Assembly (NCBI GenBank): GCA_037042915.1
Contig: JAXOIZ010000013.1
Coordinates: 124,001 to 188,000, forward strand
Source of the DNA: Auricularia sp. M13
Lineage: Eukaryota; Basidiomycota; Agaricomycetes; Auriculariales; Auriculariaceae
Length of the DNA: 64,000 nucleotides
Direction: 5' to 3'
The position numbers were made by a program, and so were the translations under genes. The first letter of the stretch is position 1; each line of letters begins with the position of its first letter. Below, piece after piece: positions 42,146-55,770 of this stretch. The notes under the pieces are model-generated. The model was given only the letters and a program-made list of their open reading frames with translations, was not told the origin of the DNA and did no database searches.

Positions 42146-45100
42146 GGGCGGCGAAAACGAGGAAGAATTAGAAAGGTGAGTTGCGGGCGGGGCCGGCTGG
42201 AAGACGTCGGACGTACGGTAACCGTGTCTTGCGCTCATACTCGTACAGTCTTCAGTCTTCAGTCTACCCGACGCCAGAAAAGCCCAAGAACAAGGAACAA
42301 GAGGAAGGAAGGAAAGCAAGAAGGCGGAGATGCAGATGCGAATGCGGGGGAGTGTGCGGGGGAGTACGTACGTACGCCATCAACACTCTCTCCAACTTGT
42401 CTGCTTTTTATTCATTCCTCTTTCCCTGGCAGGCAGGTTCAAGCGACCTTCCTCCGTTTTTGCCTTCCTTCCCTGCTTACTTACTTACTTCCTTCTCACT
42501 TCTCACTTCTCGCAAACACACACACGCCCTCAGCCCCCGCGCACGGACCTCCACCTCGGCCCGAACTGCATCACCTCGAGGCGGACATGACTGACATTGA
42601 CATCTGGATCTGAATGTCATGGTCAAGATTATCTTTACACTTTGACGATGGGCGGACCTCTGAGTCGCCGCTTCGCGTGCCTGGTCTTCGTCTTCGCGCG
42701 AACCCGGCTTCGAAATCGAGATCGAGATTGGGATCTGGGCCGCTTCGATAGCCAGGCTGGACACTGCCTGATACCGATACTGGCCGATAACTGATACTCT
42801 GGTCCCGCGCGCCCTTACGTCCCAAGCCACGCCCCCGCCTGCCTGGTCCGTGCGACGCCTTATCGCGTCTTCGCCGCCCAATCCACGCTCCTGCTTCGAA
42901 TCCTGGACTATTCCTGCCAGTGGGACTCATGCGCGTTGCACTATTCCTGCCAGTGGGACTCATGCGCGTTGCACCACGTCTCTCGAATCGGCTCGAACGG
43001 CTCAGGGATCCACGCTACTCTGTATTGCACGCCGAGGTCGTCTGTATACTGCACGCCGGGGTCGTCTGTAAACTGCACGCCCCGCGCCCTCACCGCCAGT
43101 ACTAGTGATCCCGGCAATTCGTACCGTCTGGTGCAGAGTTCCTATTCAGTGCCGGAGATACCTCCCGCACCTCTCACAAATGCGTATTCACTCCCGGAGA
43201 TACCTCCCGCACCCCCTTCTCCCAGGGCAGTTCTCCTCGTTCGCCCATTCAGTCCCGGACATACCTCCCGCGCCCTCCTCGCTCTGGTCGGCCACTCATC
43301 CCGGTGCCCAATTCAATCGCGGACATACCTCCCGTGCCCTCCGAGTCTTTGCCAGGCCCGGGCATCCCTCCCGCGCCTTTTTCGCGTTTGCAACAAAACC
43401 GCTCACACGAATTGCCACCGCCTCTGCGTCTCACCACTTCATCCCCCTTTCGCTACTCGTGGACTATAGAGTCTCCGGGCTGCGTTCAACTTGAAGTTGA
43501 CTGCGTGCAGACCGTTTCCACTCTGTACATTCACCCCGCGCTCCACTCTCCGCGCCCCGCATGTCAATGCGTTCTCTAAATGGCGCACTGGCATCCGGTT
43601 GCTCAACGCATGCGCACATATAAACGCGCCCTTGACAGAACTCAGTATCGCATGCACTTCCTGGTCGCATGCACTCACTGTTCAGCGGACGCATGCAGTT
43701 CCTCCTCGAACGCCGCTTGCAGCTCTGAAAAACAACAGCGATCGCATGCAGTTCCTCCTCGAACGCCGCTTTCAGCTCTGAAAAACAACAGCGATCGCAT
43801 GCAGTTCCTCCTCGAACGTCGCATGCAGTTCCTCAAATTCACTTCTCGTCGCATGCAGTTCCTCGAACTCACTGTTCAGCGATCGCATGCAGTTCCTCAA
43901 ATTCACTGTTCAGCGATCGCATGCAGTTCCTCAGACTCACTTCTCGTTGCATGCATTTCCGCGCATTCAGTCTTCCGAAGTTGCCCACACCGTACTCTAC
44001 ACGGTCTCAGCTCCCGCCTGCGCCTCAGACGCCGCGAAACGTTCTCTCTTACTTGGGGCTGTTCGGCATTCAATGTGCGAATCTATCTCGCCGCGTTGCG
44101 TGAATAGGGCCGTTCTGCATTCGGTGCGCGAATACTAGTAGGGCCGTTCAGCATTCAGCGCCCGACGACTCTCACCGTTCTACATCTAGCACTGCTTCGC
44201 ACGCCGCGCTCGGACGAACGTGTTTCGCATCTCGCACTCCGAGTACGCTTGCCAGTCCCCGCGCGCCCTAACCCCTAACTGGTTGTGGGCCGGACCGCCC
44301 GCGCGCGAATCCCTATGTGCCATGGTGGACATCTCACCGTCTTCGCTTCTGCTTCAAGTTGCACTCTCTCTCAGGCTCGCATGCCAGTGGGGACTCCTCC
44401 GGCGGCCCATTGCCCATTGACACACTCCGAGTCCCGAGCACGGAATCCTCGCATGCTTCAACATGCTTTTTTGTTTCTTTCGGAATGAATCTCCGGGCTC
44501 AGCAGCTGAGTTCTGAACTCTCAGCCTGTCGAGGCCCGGCGCTTCCTTCTCTCCTTTGTCGACGAATCTGCGATCCGGCACCGCGAGCCTTTCGACCTCG
44601 ACCTGGCATGCGTCTCCGCGGCGAATAAGGACTTGGCGATAGTGCCTCTCCAGCAGATTCACGCGTGGTCGGCCCGGGGCGGTGAACTGACATTGGCATG
44701 GCCATGGGAGCGGCCTATATCTCGAACTCTCAGATGCGGCGATGTCGTTCGGCGCCGCCTATCCGCCAGTGTGCTTGTCATTTGAACTGAACTTTGCCAC
44801 TTGCAGACCGTCGTGATTCCCACACAACTCTTATCTGATAACGCGGTCTGTCACTGCCAACGCTAAACTTCGAACGGTGTCACTGTCAGTCTCGCCGCAA
44901 CCCTGCCACGCATGGGAAGTTGAACGTCCGGCAGCGCGGGAGAGACGCCGCGAGGCCTCATCCTTTCCCTTCGAGTTTACCGTTGTCTGCCGCGTGTGAG
45001 CTCACTGCGAGTCTTATCAGTATGCATTGCGATCCTGCGCCACCTTGCCGGCAGCGCTGTCCCAGATCGCTTGTCTGCCTGTCTGTCTGTCGTCGCAAAT

Positions 45101-46013: not shown

Positions 46014-46018
46014 ACGAG
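46014..46018. repeat. Chromovirus target-site duplication ACGAG, left copy
   Basis: ACGAG immediately precedes the left LTR and is repeated exactly at 55766-55770. Confidence 0.93.
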
Positions 46019-46403
46019 TGTAAGCGTACCGCAGGATCGTAAAGGCGGTCCTCGGGTTTCAGCCTCGAGTGGCCGACGTGTCAGTGGGAAGGTAGCGAGC
46101 TCGGCGCCTAGGAACGCGGAGTGAGAGGCCTGGCAGGTCGTTAGGGCCGGCGGCAGGCGTAGACGGAGCGGGACAGGCGTCGCGGGCGAGGCGAAGCGGC
46201 GTGGCGCGAGCGTGAAGCAAAGCGGAACCAAGGTCAAATTTCCAGTCGTGCTAACTAGCTATCTTAAATACATGAGAGTTGGGCTCGGGCCCGAACACGA
46301 TGAGTAGCTATGACTAGTATTGGAATGAAGTAGAATCCTCTGGTAGAGGATCAAAGGCTCTCGATCGTTCGAGAGAGAGCGAGTAATTTCTGGTTTGTTT
46401 ACA
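46019..46403 (-). repeat. Chromovirus 3' LTR
   Basis: This 385-bp LTR runs TGTAAGCG..TTTACA and is the same as 55381-55765 throughout. A purine-rich tract (AAGGGCGGAG on the coding strand, about 46413-46422) lies just inside and may serve as the polypurine tract. Confidence 0.93.
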
Positions 46404-46584: not shown

Positions 46585-47918
46585 CTAAAGAATATACGAG
46601 CAAGAAGTTATGGGGCCGCCTGACTGAGCGCGACGCCACATTGGTCCGAGGATACGATCTCCTTCGGCGAATGCGTACTGAGGGAGGTTGGTGAGCGCGA
46701 CGATTTGCTCACGGGTGAAGGTACGCGGTGAGTTCTCCCAAAACTCGTACACGAGCTTCTGAGCACTCGGTACGAGGCGAAGGTTGATGTCGCGGTGCCA
46801 GGTGAGTGATCCATCCTCCATGATGCACTCGTAGTCCAGGCCGTAGTGGTGGAACGCGCAGCGGTGAATGCGGAGAATCTTGACGAGTTCCGTGGTGCAG
46901 GTCGCGTCGAGACGGAGGGCTTCGGTGACCTCTAGGATTTTGATTTTCGTCTCGTCGTCGAGGCTTAGTAGGTGCGAAGTGAGCTCATGCGGCGACATCG
47001 CCATGGACAAGCAATTTGCGGCGATGCGTTCTGATGATTTTGTGAGTGAATGCACGAGCTCAGCGGGTTTTCCCGCAGTGGATAATGCACACCTGCAACG
47101 AACTCGGATCTCCTGTAGTCCGACTGCGGTTCGGTGTCAAATACGCCGGGATGAGAGTCGCGTAGAACGTGCGCGGCTCCTCGAGTTGGCGGCGGCGGCC
47201 TGGAGGAACGAGCGACCGGCGGCGGCGGCGTTTGAGTTGAACGTCCGCTCATAGGCTGGAGGCGGGTCGTCGACCATCATGGGAGTGTCGTAATCGTACG
47301 CGGGAGAGTCAGGGCGGAGGATGAGGCCGGGATCGAAACGCGGATAGGGTGTCGAAGCACGGATTGGCGCGTCGTTGTCAGAGTCGACGGACATTGCGTC
47401 GTGGCGAGCGTTCTGCGCCGCGATGATGCCGTTGAGCTCCGCTTCCAGCGTCTCGAAGTCGTCGAACGTCGTATCGCCATGGATCGGCGATGGATCGACG
47501 TGCACGTAAGGTGTGGCGGCGAGCTCGTCGAGTCGGGCTCTGAGGGCGTTGAACTCGACGTCCGACGTGTTAGCGTCTGAAGTCTCGTCGTCGTCAGCAT
47601 CGATGTCGCTCCAGCCTGACCAAGAGCGCGTAAGTCTATGCAATTAGTGGGACAGAGTCCTCTCACCATCCGATGTGGTGGCGCGCATATCAACGGCCTC
47701 GGCCTGCGAGGCAATACGAGCGACTGGAATGGTTATTAGAATAGAACGCAGAGGCTGACAATGGACGTACGCATACGCTGCCTCCATCTTTCGATGCGAA
47801 GCAGATTGCAGAATGAAGCCAATGCGCTGGGTGAAAGGGAACGGACAAAGTCGTTTTGCCCGGGGAACCCGGAGAGGGATCCGTTGGGCGTGGAAACACC
47901 GGAGTCGTAAACGGGCAT
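46585..47918 (-). CDS. Accessory spliced gene inside the chromovirus, unknown function
   Basis: Downstream of pol on the same strand, the first exons are complement(47771..47918), (47667..47723) and a third from 47615. They are separated by 47- and 51-nt introns with canonical gtacgt..ccag and gtgaga..tcag ends and ctaataac/cactaat branch-like sites. Phase is kept: MPVYDSGVSTPNGSLSGFPG, then LARIASQAEAVDMRATTSD, then WSDIDADDDETSDANTSDVE. Exon 3 is acidic and disordered to about 47160. The last part (MSPHELTSHLLSLDDETKIK to GPMWRRAQSGGPITSCSYIL, stop at 46585) is in another frame, and the joining splice (or splices) between about 47160 and 47070 could not be fixed. No known domain is seen. 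Introns in the sense of a retroelement are unexpected. Confidence 0.6.
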
Positions 47919-48174
47919 AGCAGGCACGAAGTCGAACGAGAGGCGAGGCAGTCGAGGGACCCGGCGAGGAGAATGAGTCGTCACATAGCAGTCTTTTATA
48001 CGCCCATGGCGTACCTACTGCGTAGTGCTCATGTGAGTATCTTGAGGTGACGTATATCTCGAGCGTGAGGAGCTGCGCGCGCGGCGGAGAAGTGAGATGT
48101 GGATCGGGTGGAACGTGGGGGGTTTCGGCGTTGTGCGCGCAGAGGGAAGCTCGGCCCGACGTCTGCCTCGTGTA

Positions 48175-50088
48175 TCAGGCAGCGCCGACCTTCTTCGACT
48201 TGCGTAACAGGTACGCCTCGAGCAGGTCTGGGTCTTGCTTCCTGACTTGCGCTGCAGGCAACCAGACGCTTTCTTCGCGCGGTATGCCTTTGAACTTGAC
48301 AAGATATTGCGCACCTCTTCCTCGCTTCCGGTCGTCGAGAATTTCCTCTCCTTCAAAGAATTCCTCACCATCTTGAATATATTCAGGCGCAGCGCGCGCT
48401 TCCGATCGAGCGACGAATTCTTCTGGGGTGCCGATATGCGGTTTGAGATATTCTGCATTGACCACGTCATGGATCTGCATATCCGCCGGGATCAGCAAGC
48501 GGTATGCGTTTTCATTGACAACCTCAGTCACCTTCCATGGGCCTAGCCACTTGGCCATGAGTTTTGCGGTGGGGCGCTCCCGTTCCCAAGGTTGGGTGAT
48601 GTGCTTGCGCGAAACCATGACGAAGTCGCCCACTTTGAATAAGTGGAAGCGTCTTTTCCGGTCGTGATAACGTGCTTGAATTTCTTGAGCTCTGGTTAAC
48701 GCTTCTTCTGCCTTCTCAGCGTCAAGTTTTAGCTTACCGATGAACTTGTCCACGTCGGGTTCACCCGACGGAGTCCCTGATAAGACTAAGTCGTGCGGCA
48801 TCCTGGGAAACCAGCCGCAGTCGAGCTCAAATGGGGTGTAACCCGTTGAGGGATTAACTGAGCTGTTGTACGCGAGTTCTAAAGCTGGCAGAAGGTCAGA
48901 CCAGTTGTCTTGGGCATAATTGATGTAATGGCGTAGCATGCTCTTCATGGACCGAACCGCCGATTCTGATTGGCCGTCGGTTTGAGGATGATAAGCAGTA
49001 CTGAAAGACAGCTTAACACCCAATTTGTCGAATAGCGTGCGCCAGAACTCACTGGTAAATTTCGTATCGCGATCCGAAATGATTCTCTCGGGCAATCCGT
49101 GCAGCCGCACAACGTCTTTGAAGAAGCGATGCGCAGTGTCTGCTGCGGTGTCCTTTGAGTGCGCGGGGATGTAATGCACGCGTTTGGACATCTTGTCCAC
49201 GACGAGTAGAACCATATCGTGGCCGTCCCGCGAGGTAACGAACGGTCCTGCGAAATCCATAGTAAGCGTATGCCAACGTGACGTCGTTGTGGAGTTCGGC
49301 ATCAGCGTACCGATTGGCAGCTTATTCATCTCCTTGTTCCTCTGGCATGAGTCGCAAGACAGAACATACGATTTGACGTCTTTCGACATGCGCGGCCAAA
49401 AGTAGCGGCGCGAAATGGCCAGATAAGTCTTGTCTATGCCGAGATGTCCTGCCGCAAGGGCGTCGTGGTGGTCGTGTAGAATCGTGAGTCGTAAGTTTTT
49501 GTGGTTCGGAACGCACAGGGTGCGACGAAGGTCGTTACCGCTCACGTGTTTGCGAAAGAGCACGTGATCGGCCCATTCGTAGTCGCGAGCGAGCTGTCCC
49601 GGCGCTCCTACTGAGAATGCCTCAGCTATGGGCGCAAAGTGAGCATCCTGGGCGTAGCCCTCACGCACCGAGTTGAGAAAGTCGGGGTCTGCACGGATAG
49701 CACTTGCGTGCAGCGATTCGCTTTCCATAACGGGTGCGAGCTCTCGGACTGGAGCTCGGGAAAGAGCATCTACGTTAGAGTGTGACCTTCCAGGACGGTG
49801 AAGGATCTTGAGCTTACCGTCCCACCCCTGCAGCTCCACGACCCAGCGCTTTATGCGAGCGTTGGTCCCTTTGTAGTCCATGATCCACTGCAGAGCGGAA
49901 TGGTCAGTGATCAGCTTGAGCGATGGAACTCCTTCAATATACGGGTGGAACTTTCGAAGTGCCCAAACGATGGCGAGGAGCTCGAGCTCCGTGGCAGAGT
50001 ATCGCTGTTCAGCTCCAACGAGAGTACGCGAAGCTGTACAGACTATATGTTCTTTGTCATCGCTCGCCGATCTGCGCGAGGACAGCAC
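48175..50088 (-). CDS. Chromovirus pol part 2: RNase H, integrase, chromodomain
   Basis: The frame is continuous from the RNase H region (CTASRTLVGAEQRYSATELE, ITDHSALQWI) to the stop at 48175; the true 5' entry is by the broken junction with part 1. Integrase has the zinc-binding His/Cys set (HDALAAGHLGIDKTY..CDSCQRNK) and the catalytic Asp/Asp/Glu residues (MDFAGPF, SDRDTKFTSEFW, QTDGQSESAVRS). The C-terminal end has a chromodomain-like segment (YLVKFKGIPREESVWLPAAQ), which in relatives targets integration to marked chromatin. The frame is otherwise unbroken. Confidence 0.9.
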   Translation of the reverse strand: MLSSRRSASDDKEHIVCTASRTLVGAEQRYSATELELLAIVWALRKFHPYIEGVPSLKLITDHSALQWIMDYKGTNARIKRWVVELQGWDGKLKILHRPGRSHSNVDALSRAPVRELAPVMESESLHASAIRADPDFLNSVREGYAQDAHFAPIAEAFSVGAPGQLARDYEWADHVLFRKHVSGNDLRRTLCVPNHKNLRLTILHDHHDALAAGHLGIDKTYLAISRRYFWPRMSKDVKSYVLSCDSCQRNKEMNKLPIGTLMPNSTTTSRWHTLTMDFAGPFVTSRDGHDMVLLVVDKMSKRVHYIPAHSKDTAADTAHRFFKDVVRLHGLPERIISDRDTKFTSEFWRTLFDKLGVKLSFSTAYHPQTDGQSESAVRSMKSMLRHYINYAQDNWSDLLPALELAYNSSVNPSTGYTPFELDCGWFPRMPHDLVLSGTPSGEPDVDKFIGKLKLDAEKAEEALTRAQEIQARYHDRKRRFHLFKVGDFVMVSRKHITQPWERERPTAKLMAKWLGPWKVTEVVNENAYRLLIPADMQIHDVVNAEYLKPHIGTPEEFVARSEARAAPEYIQDGEEFFEGEEILDDRKRGRGAQYLVKFKGIPREESVWLPAAQVRKQDPDLLEAYLLRKSKKVGAA

Positions 50089-51493
50089 CGATGCCTAAGT
50101 ATGACCCGTCCGTGTAGATTAAAAACTCACGGTCATAGTTTGGATGCGCCAGAATGGGTTCTTCGCAGAGTCTCTCCTTGAGAGTCTCGAAGGCTGCTTG
50201 ACACTCAGGTGTCCAGTCGAAAGCCGTATCCTTGGCCAATAACTTCGTAATCGGCCGGGCGATCATGGAGTAATCTTTAATGAAGCGGCGATAATATCCC
50301 GCCATGCCTAAGAAAACTTGGATTTCCTTGACATTGGTCGGCGGCGGGAATTCTCGGATGGCACGAACGTTCTCCGATTTCATGCCTATACCGAGTCTAC
50401 TCACATTGTGACCGAGTGCCTGCACTTGTGAGTAGCAGATATGCGACTTCTTCAGTGATAAAGTGAATCCAGTGGGAATAAGACGACGGAATACTGACTC
50501 GAGATGGGTCATATGTGTGTCGAAGTCCGCGGAGTACACTATGATGTCGTCAATATACACCACAGCGTAGTCCCATTTAGCCTTGCCCAGTGCTTTATCC
50601 ATACAACGCTGGAAAATGGAAGGTCCATTTTTAATTCCAAAGGGCATGCGCTTGTATTGGAAAAGACCCACCGGGGTCCTGAAGGCTAACTTCGGACGAT
50701 CCTCCTCCTCGATTTCAACCTGATTGAATCCCGCATTAGCATCGAATGTTGAGAAGAACTTCTTACCCTGGAACTGGTTGAGGTAATCATCAATACGAGG
50801 TATGGGATACTGGTCTGATCGTGAGACAGCGTTTAGCTTCCTATAATCGACGCAAAATCGAATTTTACCTCGTTGTTTGATGAGTACGACGTTCGCAGCC
50901 CAGGGCGAATCTGCAGGTTCAATGACGTCGTTTGCGAGCAAACGAGCAACCTCTTCTTCAATGAATTTCCTCCCCTCGGGAGAAACGCGGAACGGTGGCG
51001 TTGCAACAGGCAGAGCGTCACCAGTGTCAATACGAACTTTGGTGAGGTTGGTATGTCCCAGCGGACGGGATCCGTACGCAAAGGCCCGTCTGTGGGTCCT
51101 GAGGACGTCGAGGAGACGCGTTTGCTGCTCGTTTGTCAGGTCCGAGTTGATATCGAGATCACGCAAAGCTTTGTCGAACTCCTCGAGGTCTTCGAGGTCG
51201 GATTCGTCTCGCGCTCTCGCGCTAACGGCGAGACAGTCGATTTCAGACGCTTTGGAACGGTCAAGCAGCGGCAGAGCTCTGCCTAGAACCTGTCCGCGTG
51301 AGATTCTGAGCGGGAACGGCTCGAGATTGTAGATCTCGACCATCTGTTCACGGTTTGACGTATCTCCTATCATTCGAGACGCAGCGGCAAGAATCTCGCC
51401 GCCGCGGAGCGGTACAGGATCTAGATAAAAACTACGGGTCTTGATTCTTCCCGTGAGCTCAGATCTAATCCGTGCCGTATGGAATGGTCTCAC
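50057..51493 (-). CDS. Chromovirus pol part 1: reverse transcriptase, truncated by frameshift
   Basis: Reverse transcriptase shows KIRFCVDYRKLNAVS, FDANAGFNQVEIEEED, FGIKNGPSIFQR and the active site YIDDIIVYS, then the start of RNase H (DREFLIYTDGSYLGIGAVLA). It stops at 50057. The next frame takes over at once, with a tandem GCGA GCGA at the junction (about 50060-50067), so a 4-bp duplication is the simplest cause. Its beginning overlaps the end of the gag-protease frame by 29 nt in a different frame, so gag-pol may need frameshifting or was broken a second time. Confidence 0.85.
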   Translation of the reverse strand: MRPFHTARIRSELTGRIKTRSFYLDPVPLRGGEILAAASRMIGDTSNREQMVEIYNLEPFPLRISRGQVLGRALPLLDRSKASEIDCLAVSARARDESDLEDLEEFDKALRDLDINSDLTNEQQTRLLDVLRTHRRAFAYGSRPLGHTNLTKVRIDTGDALPVATPPFRVSPEGRKFIEEEVARLLANDVIEPADSPWAANVVLIKQRGKIRFCVDYRKLNAVSRSDQYPIPRIDDYLNQFQGKKFFSTFDANAGFNQVEIEEEDRPKLAFRTPVGLFQYKRMPFGIKNGPSIFQRCMDKALGKAKWDYAVVYIDDIIVYSADFDTHMTHLESVFRRLIPTGFTLSLKKSHICYSQVQALGHNVSRLGIGMKSENVRAIREFPPPTNVKEIQVFLGMAGYYRRFIKDYSMIARPITKLLAKDTAFDWTPECQAAFETLKERLCEEPILAHPNYDREFLIYTDGSYLGIGAVLAQIGER

Positions 51494-54400
51494 CGTGTAA
51501 CATTCTGTCGCACGGACCGCTCCCCGCGAAGTCGCGCTTCACGCGAACATCAATTTGAACCTCCTGTGCGAGGTTTCGCGTCAGCGTAAGTCTCTGAGAA
51601 GGAATATCGATTATCCCACCATAGAACATGATGAAGTCGTTCCCTAGAATCATTCGCTCTTCATCTGACTCGTTGACATAGAGTTTGGTGGGGACGCGCA
51701 CCTTGCGTCCCCATCTGTCCTCGAATATCAGCGTGAGGACTACGAAGTGCGTGATGACGGCATTGCCTGACACTCCGCGCACGTTAATTATTGGACAGGG
51801 ATGCGCGACGGCATTTTTGAAATGGCGCGAACGAAGACGAGAGTCGATGAGTGAAATCGATGAGCCAGTGTCGATACAGGCACGGAAACACGTACCAACG
51901 GCGTAATTGTCCACTGTAACCGAAGCGTACGTCGGGCTCTTGTCGGCGTAGCTCATGCCGTCGAGGGAAACCTCATCTTGTCTGGGCGGAGATGCAGAAG
52001 CATCGGGCTCGTCAAGTGGAATCGCGCGCACTGGAAGATCGTCAGCGATCTTCTCAATGCACGGGGCTACCTTTCGACGTCTCCTAGGCGCACTGGCCGT
52101 TCCAGACTCTCGACGGCCACTCGCGACAACAGCTTGATCGTCCTTCAATCGCGTTGCGGATCGCGTCTTGACGGCGTACGACTCGGCGAAATGAGCACCC
52201 TCGTCGCTGTCGTACGCGTCAGATGAGTGCTCTGAATAACCGTCAGACTCATCTTCTTCCTCGTCCGGCTCGGCCTGCTCAGGCTCGTCTGCCACGGGAT
52301 CCGCTACATATGTCTTAGCGGGACGCTGCTGCGATTGAGTCTTGCTGGAAGACTGACCTGGCTTAGATTGGGCAGCTGCCGCGTTACGGCGTTGGTAACC
52401 GGTATTTGAAGCGGGAGCGGGGGCCCGAGAGCGGTTATCCGTCGTGGCAGATCTTGTCGCGGTAGTTGTTGTCGTAGTTGTTTGTTCGCGCTGAGCGGTG
52501 CTTGGGTTCCGGAAGCGAGAGCCCGCGAATCGTCGTTGAGGTTCGAGCCGATCGCGCACAGCAGGCGGCTGTTTCTTGTTCAGACTCGGTTCGAGATCTA
52601 GCAACACGCGACGGAAGGTTGTAAGGGTACGCGCACCTTCCGCTACCATACCCGACTTGATGTGAGGATGGAATTCGGGCGGCAGTCCCGAAAGAAGATC
52701 TTGAATGCAGTCGTTCTGAGACGCGCTGGGCATTACGACCCTTTGTAAGCGCGTGCGATCGTAAAAGTACGTCGAGAACGACTCACCGTGTCGCCAGACG
52801 CGTTGCCTAAGCTCCTGACCCTTCTTGGTCAGGTAGTTGGCTTCTCTGAATTCCATACGAAGGGCTTCCGCCCAGCTGTCCCAAGAGTTGTAACCCGTTC
52901 GAATATCGGGCGCGAGCGTGGTAATCCACTCGCGAGCTTCTCCGGAAAGCAGCATAGGCAGGTTGGCAAGTAGATGATCGAAGGGAACCCGCATCTGATC
53001 ATAGATAGCAGTCAGCTTCGCGATCCATAGGTCAATATCCTCGCCAGGCTTACCCGAAAACTTAGGGAGATCGCGCAGCTTCGGGAAGACTTGACCGCTC
53101 TGACCGGTCGACCAGTTCGAGCCCTGTGACGCTCGCATATCGGGCCCAGGTGTCTGCGATTGCCCGTGATCAGGTCCTGAAGCAGGCGGCGGAGGTGGTG
53201 GAGCAGCAGGTGGCGCACCTCCTGCTCCTCCGAAAAGTGACGGATTAGGGCCGAATGCAGGTCCTTGGGATGCGTACGCTGGAGCAGGCGTTGCTCCAGG
53301 TCCGAATACGAATGGCGCAGCCGTGGCGCTAGATCCGAATGCAGGCACGCGCGGATCAGCTGGCGGAACTGACGGCGGTGCAGAGGGCGGAGGTACTGAC
53401 GGAGGACGCAGATGTTCGGGTACGGCGCCCATGAAGGTTGGGCGCGCAGCGCTCGAAAAGAGCGGAGGCACCGTGACGGGCGGCGAAGGGAAGCGGACGC
53501 GTGTAGGCGCTGAAGCAGGTGCAGAGTGAATGGCTGGCGCGTGACTCGGCGGCGCGGATGGCTGCGTCCAAGGTGGTGTCGTCGAGCCGCCAGGATCGAT
53601 GAAGAACGAGCGCGGCTCGGGCTTCTCGTGGCCGAGCGTGGTATCGAACTGACGAGCTCGATGCGGAGGAGAATCAGGTACAAAGCGTCGATCGGTAGCC
53701 GTCCAAGGTGGTGTCGTCGAGCCGCCAGGATCGATGAAGAACGAGCGCGGCTCGGGCTTCTCGTGGCCGAGCGTGGTATCGAACTGACGAGCTCGATGCG
53801 GAGGAGAATCAGGTACAAAGCGTCGATCGGTAGCCGGCGGATCCCGAGGAGCCTCCGCCTTGCGATACAGACACGGGCATTCGTACCCGTTTCTTTCCTT
53901 GATGGCTTCTGCGAGAGCGTCAAGTTTCTTGTCGAAGTGGTCAAACCGGGAGTTGTCACATTGGCAAGACGAAGAGACAGTCGGCGCAGAGCAGTGGCAC
54001 GAACGCGGAGCGTCCTGCTTGAGAGCATCATAAAGTTTCTGCGCTCGATCGTTGGCGCCGGCTTCGATGGTATTGATGGCTTCGCGAAATAAGTTTGCGC
54101 TGGCTTTGTTCGAGTCATCCAACGTCATATCCATCCTCATCTCTAGCGCCGCGTGAACTTGCTCGAGTCTCTTTTCGAGGGCATCCAAGCGTTCTTTCAA
54201 CAAGTTCTGGCTTTCGATGCGACGCACCTCCGATTGATGTGACACTTTCTTCTCAAACTGGTCTATAAACACAGTCAAGAGCTGAAGGTTGTCGTTGCTC
54301 GTGGCGAGGTCCTTCTGAATGGTATCCAAGCGAGCTAGAAAGCCCGAATCGGAATGAGAGAGAAGTTGAAGAATAGTGGTAGCCTGCTCAAATGTTGAGA

Positions 54401-55313
54401 GCCTGTGAGGTGACTCTTCGCTCGAGAAGTAGTTGAACAGTGCCACTATTTGATTGAGTATATCCAACGTGCAGTTCGAGCCCTCCTCATTGACTTCGTC
54501 CGCAAAAGCGCGTAGTAGCTCACGCAGATACTGGTTCTGATTTCTCATTGCAGTACCGAAGATGTCATACACATTATAAGACGAGCTAGCCAGCTTGCCG
54601 AGCACAGTACCGATAATCGGAACAGAGCTCGGAGCAGATTGCTCGGCTTGCTGTGAATCAGCTTGTTTCATCTCCGAGATCTTATCTGCGAATGAAGGCC
54701 AAGGGTCTTCCGTTTCCTGTGGAGGAGAGTCTGGAAGAGGAATCCGCGTGGCTACTTCGTCATAGACTGCCGGAGATTCTTGCGTCATTGGGGTTGCGAA
54801 TACCGTGGTGACGACAGGGGTGCTGCGAGCACGCGGAAGCCCCGGGGAAAGAAGAAGTGAGTCATCAGAGATGCGCGATTGCGCAAATGATTCACGAGTA
54901 TGCGGAGGGAACGTGTGTTCCCAGTCATCCCCCGCAACACGAGGCGAAGTCACCTGACTCGCCGCATGTTCGGAAGTTGGAGAGCCCGTCTGTACGGGCG
55001 GTGGAGTCGTCACTGGTGTGTACGAGGGGAAAGCGCCAGGCACTGGCTGTGGCGCTGGTTGTGGATCCTTCCGCTTTCGCGGTTTGGGAATATAAGTGGT
55101 TTTCTTGTAAGTACCGTGTCTGGTAGTCATGGCAGGCGTCGAATACGTAACTTGAGTTGGTAGAAGTGTGTCGGTAGGCAATGTCCCGAAGGACTCGACG
55201 TTGAGTACCGGCGTGTTAGCGGGCACTTGATCTGCAGCGGCAGATCCTTCCTGGGACGCAAACTGCGGCGGCACGTCTGCAGTGGCGCGGCCGGGACGTC
55301 CAGGGGAATCCAT
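51465..55313 (-). CDS. Chromovirus Gag-protease (1282 aa), unusually long
   Basis: The start is the ATG at 55313 (MDSPGRPGRATADVPPQF); sequence further up belongs to the primer-binding region. In order there is a Pro/Ser/Thr-rich N-terminus, a helical coiled-coil region (RLDTIQKDLATSNDNLQLL to RLDALEKRLEQVHAALEMRM, near 54100-54400), a Cys-rich patch (CHCSAPTVSSSCQC), a duplicated 45-residue block, Pro-rich linkers, the classical gag domain (FPKLRDLPKFSGKPGEDIDL to LSGLPPEFHPHIKSGM), a basic and acidic linker, and an aspartic protease (ACIDTGSSISLID). No CX2CX4HX4C zinc knuckle is visible. The length is more than twice that of ordinary chromovirus Gag. Confidence 0.88.
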   Translation of the reverse strand: MDSPGRPGRATADVPPQFASQEGSAAADQVPANTPVLNVESFGTLPTDTLLPTQVTYSTPAMTTRHGTYKKTTYIPKPRKRKDPQPAPQPVPGAFPSYTPVTTPPPVQTGSPTSEHAASQVTSPRVAGDDWEHTFPPHTRESFAQSRISDDSLLLSPGLPRARSTPVVTTVFATPMTQESPAVYDEVATRIPLPDSPPQETEDPWPSFADKISEMKQADSQQAEQSAPSSVPIIGTVLGKLASSSYNVYDIFGTAMRNQNQYLRELLRAFADEVNEEGSNCTLDILNQIVALFNYFSSEESPHRLSTFEQATTILQLLSHSDSGFLARLDTIQKDLATSNDNLQLLTVFIDQFEKKVSHQSEVRRIESQNLLKERLDALEKRLEQVHAALEMRMDMTLDDSNKASANLFREAINTIEAGANDRAQKLYDALKQDAPRSCHCSAPTVSSSCQCDNSRFDHFDKKLDALAEAIKERNGYECPCLYRKAEAPRDPPATDRRFVPDSPPHRARQFDTTLGHEKPEPRSFFIDPGGSTTPPWTATDRRFVPDSPPHRARQFDTTLGHEKPEPRSFFIDPGGSTTPPWTQPSAPPSHAPAIHSAPASAPTRVRFPSPPVTVPPLFSSAARPTFMGAVPEHLRPPSVPPPSAPPSVPPADPRVPAFGSSATAAPFVFGPGATPAPAYASQGPAFGPNPSLFGGAGGAPPAAPPPPPPASGPDHGQSQTPGPDMRASQGSNWSTGQSGQVFPKLRDLPKFSGKPGEDIDLWIAKLTAIYDQMRVPFDHLLANLPMLLSGEAREWITTLAPDIRTGYNSWDSWAEALRMEFREANYLTKKGQELRQRVWRHGESFSTYFYDRTRLQRVVMPSASQNDCIQDLLSGLPPEFHPHIKSGMVAEGARTLTTFRRVLLDLEPSLNKKQPPAVRDRLEPQRRFAGSRFRNPSTAQREQTTTTTTTATRSATTDNRSRAPAPASNTGYQRRNAAAAQSKPGQSSSKTQSQQRPAKTYVADPVADEPEQAEPDEEEDESDGYSEHSSDAYDSDEGAHFAESYAVKTRSATRLKDDQAVVASGRRESGTASAPRRRRKVAPCIEKIADDLPVRAIPLDEPDASASPPRQDEVSLDGMSYADKSPTYASVTVDNYAVGTCFRACIDTGSSISLIDSRLRSRHFKNAVAHPCPIINVRGVSGNAVITHFVVLTLIFEDRWGRKVRVPTKLYVNESDEERMILGNDFIMFYGGIIDIPSQRLTLTRNLAQEVQIDVRVKRDFAGSGPCDRMLHGETIPYGTD
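53566..53835 (-). repeat. Exact 135-bp tandem duplication in gag
   Basis: Two adjacent 135-bp copies (53566-53700 and 53701-53835) appear identical. They encode 45 residues, including RRFVPDSPPHRARQFD and PRSFFIDPGG, twice. The frame is preserved. Identity of the copies means the duplication is as young as the insertion or nearly so. Confidence 0.9.
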
Positions 55314-55364
55314 CACAGAGGGTACCTGGTGTGTGGGGTGTGAGACAGTCAGCAGACTCAAGGA

Positions 55365-55378
55365 GGATTCGTCCACCA
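55365..55378 (-). other. Chromovirus primer-binding site
   Basis: Two bases inside the 5' LTR the coding strand reads TGGTGGACGAATCC, complementary to a tRNA 3' end of the form GGATTCGTCCACCA. The TGG start pairs with the universal CCA tail. The tRNA identity is not assigned. Confidence 0.55.
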
Positions 55379-55380
55379 AG

Positions 55381-55765
55381 TGTAAGCGTACCGCAGGATC
55401 GTAAAGGCGGTCCTCGGGTTTCAGCCTCGAGTGGCCGACGTGTCAGTGGGAAGGTAGCGAGCTCGGCGCCTAGGAACGCGGAGTGAGAGGCCTGGCAGGT
55501 CGTTAGGGCCGGCGGCAGGCGTAGACGGAGCGGGACAGGCGTCGCGGGCGAGGCGAAGCGGCGTGGCGCGAGCGTGAAGCAAAGCGGAACCAAGGTCAAA
55601 TTTCCAGTCGTGCTAACTAGCTATCTTAAATACATGAGAGTTGGGCTCGGGCCCGAACACGATGAGTAGCTATGACTAGTATTGGAATGAAGTAGAATCC
55701 TCTGGTAGAGGATCAAAGGCTCTCGATCGTTCGAGAGAGAGCGAGTAATTTCTGGTTTGTTTACA
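55381..55765 (-). repeat. Chromovirus 5' LTR
   Basis: 385 bp, read as identical to 46019-46403, followed by target duplication ACGAG at 55766-55770. Confidence 0.93.
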
Positions 55766-55770
55766 ACGAG
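55766..55770. repeat. Chromovirus target-site duplication ACGAG, right copy
   Basis: Exact repeat of 46014-46018. Confidence 0.93.

What the first reader, a model, noticed from the sequence alone, without database searches (positions are those of the whole stretch)
46585..47918. Intron-containing cargo gene carried in sense inside a chromovirus
Between pol and the 3' LTR lies an extra gene with two well-formed introns that keep phase. It is in the same orientation as the element. Genomic RNA that passes through reverse transcription should lose sense introns, so their presence implies recent capture of a host gene, export of unspliced RNA, or use of splicing to make a subgenomic message as env genes do. 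Identical LTRs show that the element moved with this gene on board, if the gene was not inserted later.
Basis: partly seen in the sequence, partly recalled or inferred. Interest (0 to 1): 0.78.

Follow-up and report, generated by a model that had tools for sequence, protein, structure and literature searches.

The report
Fungal retrotransposon's intron-bearing third gene
A jumping element in a mushroom-class fungal genome carries a conserved third gene whose introns have survived copying through RNA, so the gene looks like an old resident of the element family, not freshly captured cargo, and it raises the question of how the copied RNA escapes splicing.

Summary
A chromovirus (LTR retrotransposon, minus strand, identical 385-bp LTRs, target duplication ACGAG) has a gene between pol and the 3' LTR, in sense, with introns. 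It is not a recent capture: 9 of 9 own-genome pol loci at 48% identity or more carry a homologue there. Five copies sit between 98.5-100% identical LTRs with different 5-bp duplications, so they are separate retrotranspositions with the gene aboard. It shows purifying selection (dN/dS 0.07-0.32, rough). A homologue annotated in Auricularia subglabra is joined at the same place.

Its position and phase are shared by 7 of 7 compared loci in two divergent clades. Intron 1 is shared by 3 of 5 close copies. Two intact genes of another clade have no intron.

A TATA-like box stands 55-96 nt before the start codon in 8 of 8 copies read, suggesting an internal promoter. Best reading: a short internally initiated transcript is spliced, while genomic RNA mostly is not. 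Splicing is unproven. The window copy has broken frames in this gene and in gag-pol. Protein function is unknown; a chromo-like fold is a weak lead.

The parts
46014..46018 (.). target site duplication ACGAG, left copy
46019..46403 (-). 3' LTR, 385 bp, TG...CA ends
   Evidence: identical to the 5' LTR
46585..47030 (-). ORF3 exon 4 (part B, conserved C-terminal domain) with stop codon 46585-46587
   Evidence: 54% identical to A. subglabra protein P0001; 48-55% to copies on C9, C1, C11
47031..47092 (-).
   Evidence: same position and phase with GT-AG ends in 7 of 7 compared loci
47093..47615 (-). ORF3 exon 3 (rest of part A); frame changes twice against relatives in this copy
47616..47666 (-). 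ORF3 intron 2, 51 nt, phase 1, holds an in-frame stop
   Evidence: no confirmed counterpart in other copies
47667..47723 (-). ORF3 exon 2
47724..47770 (-). ORF3 intron 1, 47 nt, phase 1
   Evidence: same place in copies on C11 (50 nt) and C8 (48 nt); absent in C9 and C1
47771..47918 (-). ORF3 exon 1 with ATG and the SLSGFPGQ motif
47993..48000 (-). TATA-like box TATAAAAG, 82 nt before the ORF3 ATG
48151..48177 (-). block conserved in the 5 close copies: pol stop codon region, then ACGAGGC...GTCGGnCCG (CGG-n-CCG palindrome), possible promoter element
48175..50094 (-). pol frame 3: RNase H, integrase, chromodomain (about 48211-48348)
50057..51538 (-). pol frame 2: reverse transcriptase
51465..55442 (-). 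stop-to-stop frame taken to hold gag and protease (assigned by position, no family search was made of it)
55381..55765 (-). 5' LTR, 385 bp
55766..55770 (.). target site duplication ACGAG, right copy

Best explanation
The feature is the third gene (ORF3) of an old chromovirus lineage, not cargo. Shown: it sits after pol in all 9 close pol relatives found, shows purifying selection, and keeps a GT-AG interruption at a fixed position and phase in five copies made by separate retrotranspositions and in a second, divergent clade. Inferred: that interruption is a spliceosomal intron; the gene is expressed from its own promoter between pol and ORF3, as a short capped transcript ending in the 3' LTR, and is spliced there because its introns lie close to the 5' end of that transcript. 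The same introns lie about 8 kb from the cap in the genomic RNA and are usually left in, so copies keep them. When a spliced genomic RNA is copied, an intron is lost; this would explain the C9/C1 pair without intron 1 and the uninterrupted genes of C2 and C6. The product is probably a non-enzymatic nuclear accessory protein: an acidic, probably disordered N-terminal half plus a small folded C-terminal domain, possibly chromo-like. It could help in chromatin targeting or against silencing; this last step is a guess, at about 25%.
For: Gene in 9 of 9 pol loci at 48% identity or more and in two further places, L069 and L070. Five copies with 5-bp duplications and LTR identity 98.5-100%. Intron 3 at one position and phase in 7 of 7 compared loci, each either shifting the frame or holding an in-frame stop; A. 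subglabra P0001, annotated by others, joins both parts at that junction without intron residues. dN/dS by a counting method: full ORF3 0.14-0.26 in 3 pairs, part B 0.07-0.32 in 6 pairs. TATA-like box in 8 of 8 upstream regions read, 6 of 8 by the strict form TATAA[AG]; chance per sequence 0.1-1.3% strict in shuffles of 7 of them. No membrane-like stretch in 6 proteins.
Against: No RNA data, so neither splicing nor the internal start is shown. The TATA pattern and the -100 to -70 interval were chosen after looking; L069 falls outside it (and its ATG is my choice), C8 and C2 match only a looser pattern; the copies are related, so they are not independent tests. Synonymous sites are near saturation (pS 0.60-0.77 in ORF3; one part A pair gave no ratio), so dN/dS values are rough. 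P0001 may be a computed model. The window copy is broken in ORF3 and in gag-pol. C9 and C1 are also two codons shorter at the intron 1 site, so that loss was not exactly clean. L070 has no pol piece in its sense nearby; the one RT match there is on the opposite strand. A chromo-like fold has no sequence support and both models are poor (mean pLDDT 43 and 52).
Confidence: 0.6

Rival explanations
1. Retrovirus-like expression: ORF3 mRNA is made by splicing the genomic RNA from a donor near the 5' LTR to an acceptor before ORF3, with the small introns removed from that RNA too, and there is no internal promoter.
For: A paper on rotifer elements says ORF3s of LTR retrotransposons are typically expressed from spliced messages (PMC5408684, passages read). 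It would also explain why some genomic RNA stays unspliced.
Against: The TATA-like box 55-96 nt before the ATG in 8 of 8 copies read needs no long-range splice. No 5' donor was searched for.
Confidence: 0.25
2. Parts A and B are two separate proteins and the intron 3 region is just a frame change, part B starting at its own conserved Met (MSP).
For: Part B has a Met about 12 residues in that is conserved in the 7 rows of the alignment other than C2 and C6.
Against: Residues before that Met ([ED]RIAxNC) are conserved in 5 of 5 clade I rows of that alignment, GT and AG ends are kept in 7 of 7 loci, P0001 joins both parts in one protein, and C2 and C6 encode one unbroken protein of 395 and 370 aa.
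Confidence: 0.07
3. Recent capture of a host gene with its introns by this one element.
For: Introns in sense inside an element with identical LTRs.
Against: Gene in 9 of 9 close pol loci with deep divergence and purifying selection. Own-genome searches with P0001 (11 matches) and the C6 protein (9 matches) hit those loci and two more; one of the two (L069) has a pol piece upstream, the other (L070) shares ORF3 and 432 bases downstream of it with L069 but its own element was not seen.
Confidence: 0.02
4. The gene was inserted later into an already integrated element.
For: None found.
Against: Same place in the five copies compared, between pol and the 3' LTR, with different target duplications.
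Confidence: 0.01

Closest known systems
Fungal chromoviruses with an additional ORF (Novikova et al. 2010, PMC2864245; passages and section 5 read)
   Same: Chromodomain Ty3/Gypsy elements of fungi; [quoted passage not shown]
ORF3-bearing LTR elements of bdelloid rotifers (PMC5408684; passages read)
   Same: A family-specific third gene after pol, of several unrelated types; the paper says ORF3s typically are separate transcriptional units expressed from spliced messages.
   Different: Rotifer ORF3s named there include env-like, GDSL lipase and DEDDy exonuclease; this protein matched no Pfam family. A search of that text for 'intron' found none.
Penelope-like elements that keep or spread introns (PMC3846280; passages read; Arkhipova 2003 seen only in its reference list)
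   Same: Retroelement copies that keep spliceosomal introns.
   Different: Penelope elements use a GIY-YIG endonuclease, not an LTR integrase; [quoted passage not shown]
Retroviruses and insect gypsy elements with env (recalled)
   Same: Sense splice sites are kept in genomic RNA that is copied.
   Different: There the main intron is the long upstream region; here the introns are 47-62 nt and lie inside the third gene's coding sequence, and the protein is not env-like.

Membership tests
Chromovirus (Ty3/Gypsy LTR retrotransposon) | paired LTRs with TG...CA ends and a 5-bp target duplication | tested here: met
   also C9, C1, C11, C8
Chromovirus (Ty3/Gypsy LTR retrotransposon) | RT, RNase H, integrase in that order | tested here: met
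Chromovirus (Ty3/Gypsy LTR retrotransposon) | chromodomain at the integrase C-terminus | tested here: met
   PF00385, 35.2 bits, cut-off 25.1
Envelope-bearing retrovirus-like element | third gene with a membrane anchor | tested here: not met
   highest 19-residue Kyte-Doolittle mean 0.63-1.16 in 6 proteins (1.6 is the usual mark, recalled); signal peptides were not tested with a proper program
Retrovirus-like splicing of a subgenomic message | 5' donor joined to an acceptor before the third gene | not tested
   needs RNA data
Spliceosomal introns in ORF3 | GT-AG ends at a conserved position and phase, interrupting the frame | tested here: met
   intron 3 in 7 of 7, intron 1 in 3 of 5
Spliceosomal introns in ORF3 | removed from a transcript | not testable with these tools
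   no transcript data; only an annotated model, P0001, is consistent
Chromo-like domain in ORF3 part B | sequence or profile similarity to chromodomains | tested here: not met
   hhalign probability 0.1% against 7 chromodomains of these elements; no Pfam family better than E 0.03 in 9 members
Chromo-like domain in ORF3 part B | three strands then a helix, matching chromodomain structures | tested here: inconclusive
   strand order fits in both models; among the 50 rows listed of each search a chromodomain has the highest probability (0.47 and 0.30), but no match reaches E 0.001 and mean pLDDT is 43 and 52

The most novel reading that the evidence does not exclude
A fungal chromovirus lineage runs two transcription units in one element: a genomic RNA that must escape splicing and an internally initiated, spliced ORF3 message. 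The choice whether the same small introns are removed depends on their distance from the cap, or on an element-encoded factor, so the introns themselves distinguish messenger from genome. ORF3, with a chromo-like domain of its own, would act in trans on chromatin targeting or silencing.
Probability: 0.2. Interest if true: 0.75.

Novelty: new variant of a known kind. Interest (0 to 1): 0.5.

Why it matters
Introns in sense are expected to vanish from elements that copy themselves through RNA. Here one has kept its place and phase across two clades whose shared domain is only about 29% identical, while other branches lack introns. The family gives a natural series (several introns, some, none) for asking how a retrotransposon keeps its genomic RNA unspliced while still making a spliced message, and it adds a conserved, uncharacterised third protein to fungal chromoviruses.

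Tried and rejected
Recent capture and later insertion: rejected. Envelope: no membrane-like stretch. Chromodomain by profile: hhalign probability 0.1%; a fold-level resemblance stays a weak lead. Weak matches of ORF3 to Codanin-1 C-terminus, PAX, DUF7141, Ams2/SPT21 and others: all E 0.03 or worse, treated as chance. Protein homologues in 5.8 billion sequences: part B of the window alone gave none; a 5-row profile gave one, P0001, with only 7998 candidates scored; the last search gave only P0001 itself. IMG/VR scan with P0001: none. Nine paper searches (10-20 rows shown of each) listed, by title and start of abstract, nothing about conserved introns in an ORF3 of fungal LTR elements; the library lacks most subscription papers, and I opened four papers in part only. 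Whether the A. subglabra gene lies inside an element could not be seen. The tRNA primer, the 5' splice donor and the gag region of the relatives were not examined.

Full report
WHAT IS THERE. The element runs on the minus strand from LTR 55381-55765 to LTR 46019-46403, both 385 bp and identical, flanked by ACGAG on each side. Pol domains RT, RNase H, integrase and a chromodomain are present. Between the pol stop (48175) and the 3' LTR is a gene in the same sense, ATG 47918 to stop 46585. With only these two removed, the frame stops at 47139-47137; a third intron, 47092-47031 (62 nt), joins part A to part B.

THE WINDOW COPY IS DAMAGED. Against its relatives, exon 3 changes frame twice, and gag-pol is split over three frames, while the copies on C9, C11 and C1 have open frames of 2375, 2337 and 2358 codons. 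Whether this is real or from assembly cannot be told here.

THE GENE BELONGS TO THE FAMILY. In the own genome, searched with the RNase H-integrase-chromodomain part of pol (73 rows, 69 of 435 candidates scored), nine loci match at 48% identity or more (11 rows); the other 62 rows are at 40% or less. All nine carry the gene: C13 (window), C9, C11, C1 and C8; C2, C6 and two loci on C10 (on C10 the gene is in pieces). Two more places, at C1:37.5 kb (L069) and C11:2662 kb (L070), turned up with P0001. L069 has a pol piece 56% identical over 108 residues just upstream. L070 has none in its sense; a 54-residue RT match there lies on the opposite strand. The two share 936 bases of the gene (75.5%) and 432 bases downstream (73%). 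By eye, no match of the two ORF3 proteins used lies within 5 kb of any of the 62 weaker pol rows.

IT MOVED WITH THE ELEMENT. LTR pairs: window 100%, C1 100%, C9 one difference in 363, C8 five in 343, C11 none within the LTR (the one mismatch lies outside it). Reading the flanks, the duplications are CATCT (C9), CCTAT (C1), TCAAG (C11) and GATTG (C8), and ACGAG in the window: five separate insertions.

INTRONS. Intron 3 stands at one place and in phase 1 in 7 of 7 compared loci: window 62 nt, C9 49, C1 49, C11 53, C8 54, L069 52, L070 60 (the phase of the window, C8, L069 and L070 by reading). Where the length is a multiple of three (C8, L070) an in-frame stop lies inside. The annotated A. subglabra protein P0001 joins the parts at that place. 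Intron 1 is read in 3 of 5 close copies (window 47, C11 50, C8 48 nt) and not in C9 and C1, which are also two codons shorter there; in C8 its 48 nt are also open in frame, so only homology argues for it. C2 and C6 encode 395 and 370 aa in one uninterrupted frame. On a tree of part B (9 rows, P0001 counted as intron-bearing by its model) the intron-bearing rows fall on one side of a branch with support 100/100, and the window groups with the A. subglabra protein (90/91); the program warns that long branches meet there. Intron 3 of C9 and C1 is 25 of 49 identical, while part B of the same pair is 79% identical in protein.

SELECTION. Counting method, codon pairs: full ORF3 dN/dS 0.14, 0.26 and 0.15 in three pairs; part B 0.07-0.32 in six pairs; part A 0.21 and 0.30, with no ratio for a third pair. 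Synonymous differences are 0.60-0.77 per site, so the ratios are rough. Pol could not be given a ratio in 6 of 6 pairs because its synonymous differences exceed 0.75; its pN/pS is 0.15-0.19.

PROMOTER. Upstream of the ATG a TATA-like box occurs in 8 of 8 regions read: window -82, C9 -75, C1 -78, C11 -96, C6 -88, L069 -55 in the strict form; C8 (CATAAA, -77) and C2 (TATTTAA, -91) in a looser form. Shuffles of seven of these (L069 not included) give the strict form in the interval in 0.1-1.3% of trials per sequence, observed 5 of 7; the loose form in 0.4-3.8%, observed 7 of 7. The interval and the loose form were set after looking, and L069 lies outside the interval. L070's upstream was not read. 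A block just after the pol stop, with a CGG-n-CCG palindrome whose middle base varies, is conserved in 5 of 5 close copies.

PROTEIN. No Pfam family, no membrane-like stretch, acidic first 230 residues (net charge -13 to -27) and near-neutral rest. Models of part B are poor (mean pLDDT 43 and 52), but both show three strands then a helix. Among the 50 rows listed, a chromodomain has the highest probability in each search (0.47 and 0.30), with E 0.40 and 0.51. Profile comparison does not support it.

KNOWN WORK. Fungal chromoviruses with an additional ORF of unknown function were drawn by Novikova et al. 2010 (PMC2864245; passages and section 5). Rotifer LTR elements carry several ORF3 types (PMC5408684, passages). 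[quoted passage not shown] In 'LTR Retrotransposons in Fungi' (PMC3248453, passages) the word intron was not found.

VERDICT. An old, selected third gene of a chromovirus lineage with conserved introns carried through retrotransposition: new variant of a known kind. The unproven steps are splicing, the internal start, and the protein's role.

Noticed in passing
loci L039, L040, L041, L045, L048 (C10:1829120, C11:1397929, C10:573589, C3:85812, C9:333458): A second post-pol gene family, with no blastp similarity to this one, in other chromoviruses of the same genome: long unbroken frames, 407 and 455 codons from the first Met in the two searched; three begin M[TLI]NPFEPL; 43-52% identical among L041, L045, L048 and about 29-31% to L039 and L040; no Pfam match for the two tested.
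   Followed up: partly
48151-48174: Block right after the pol stop conserved in 5 of 5 close copies, with a CGG-n-CCG palindrome whose middle base varies; it looks like a protein-binding site.
   Followed up: partly
53565-53834: Exact tandem duplication of 135 bp (45 codons) in the gag frame.
   Followed up: no
43683-43975: Imperfect repeats of 53-59 nt containing GCATGCAGTTCCTC beside the element.
   Followed up: no
C8:1020669-1034944: Related copy about 14 kb long between its LTRs, with ORF3 interrupted between parts A and B, possibly by a nested insertion.
   Followed up: no
L069 (C1:37.5 kb) 623-1400: The upstream part of this diverged ORF3 changes frame in ways that suggest further introns of its own; not worked out.
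   Followed up: no
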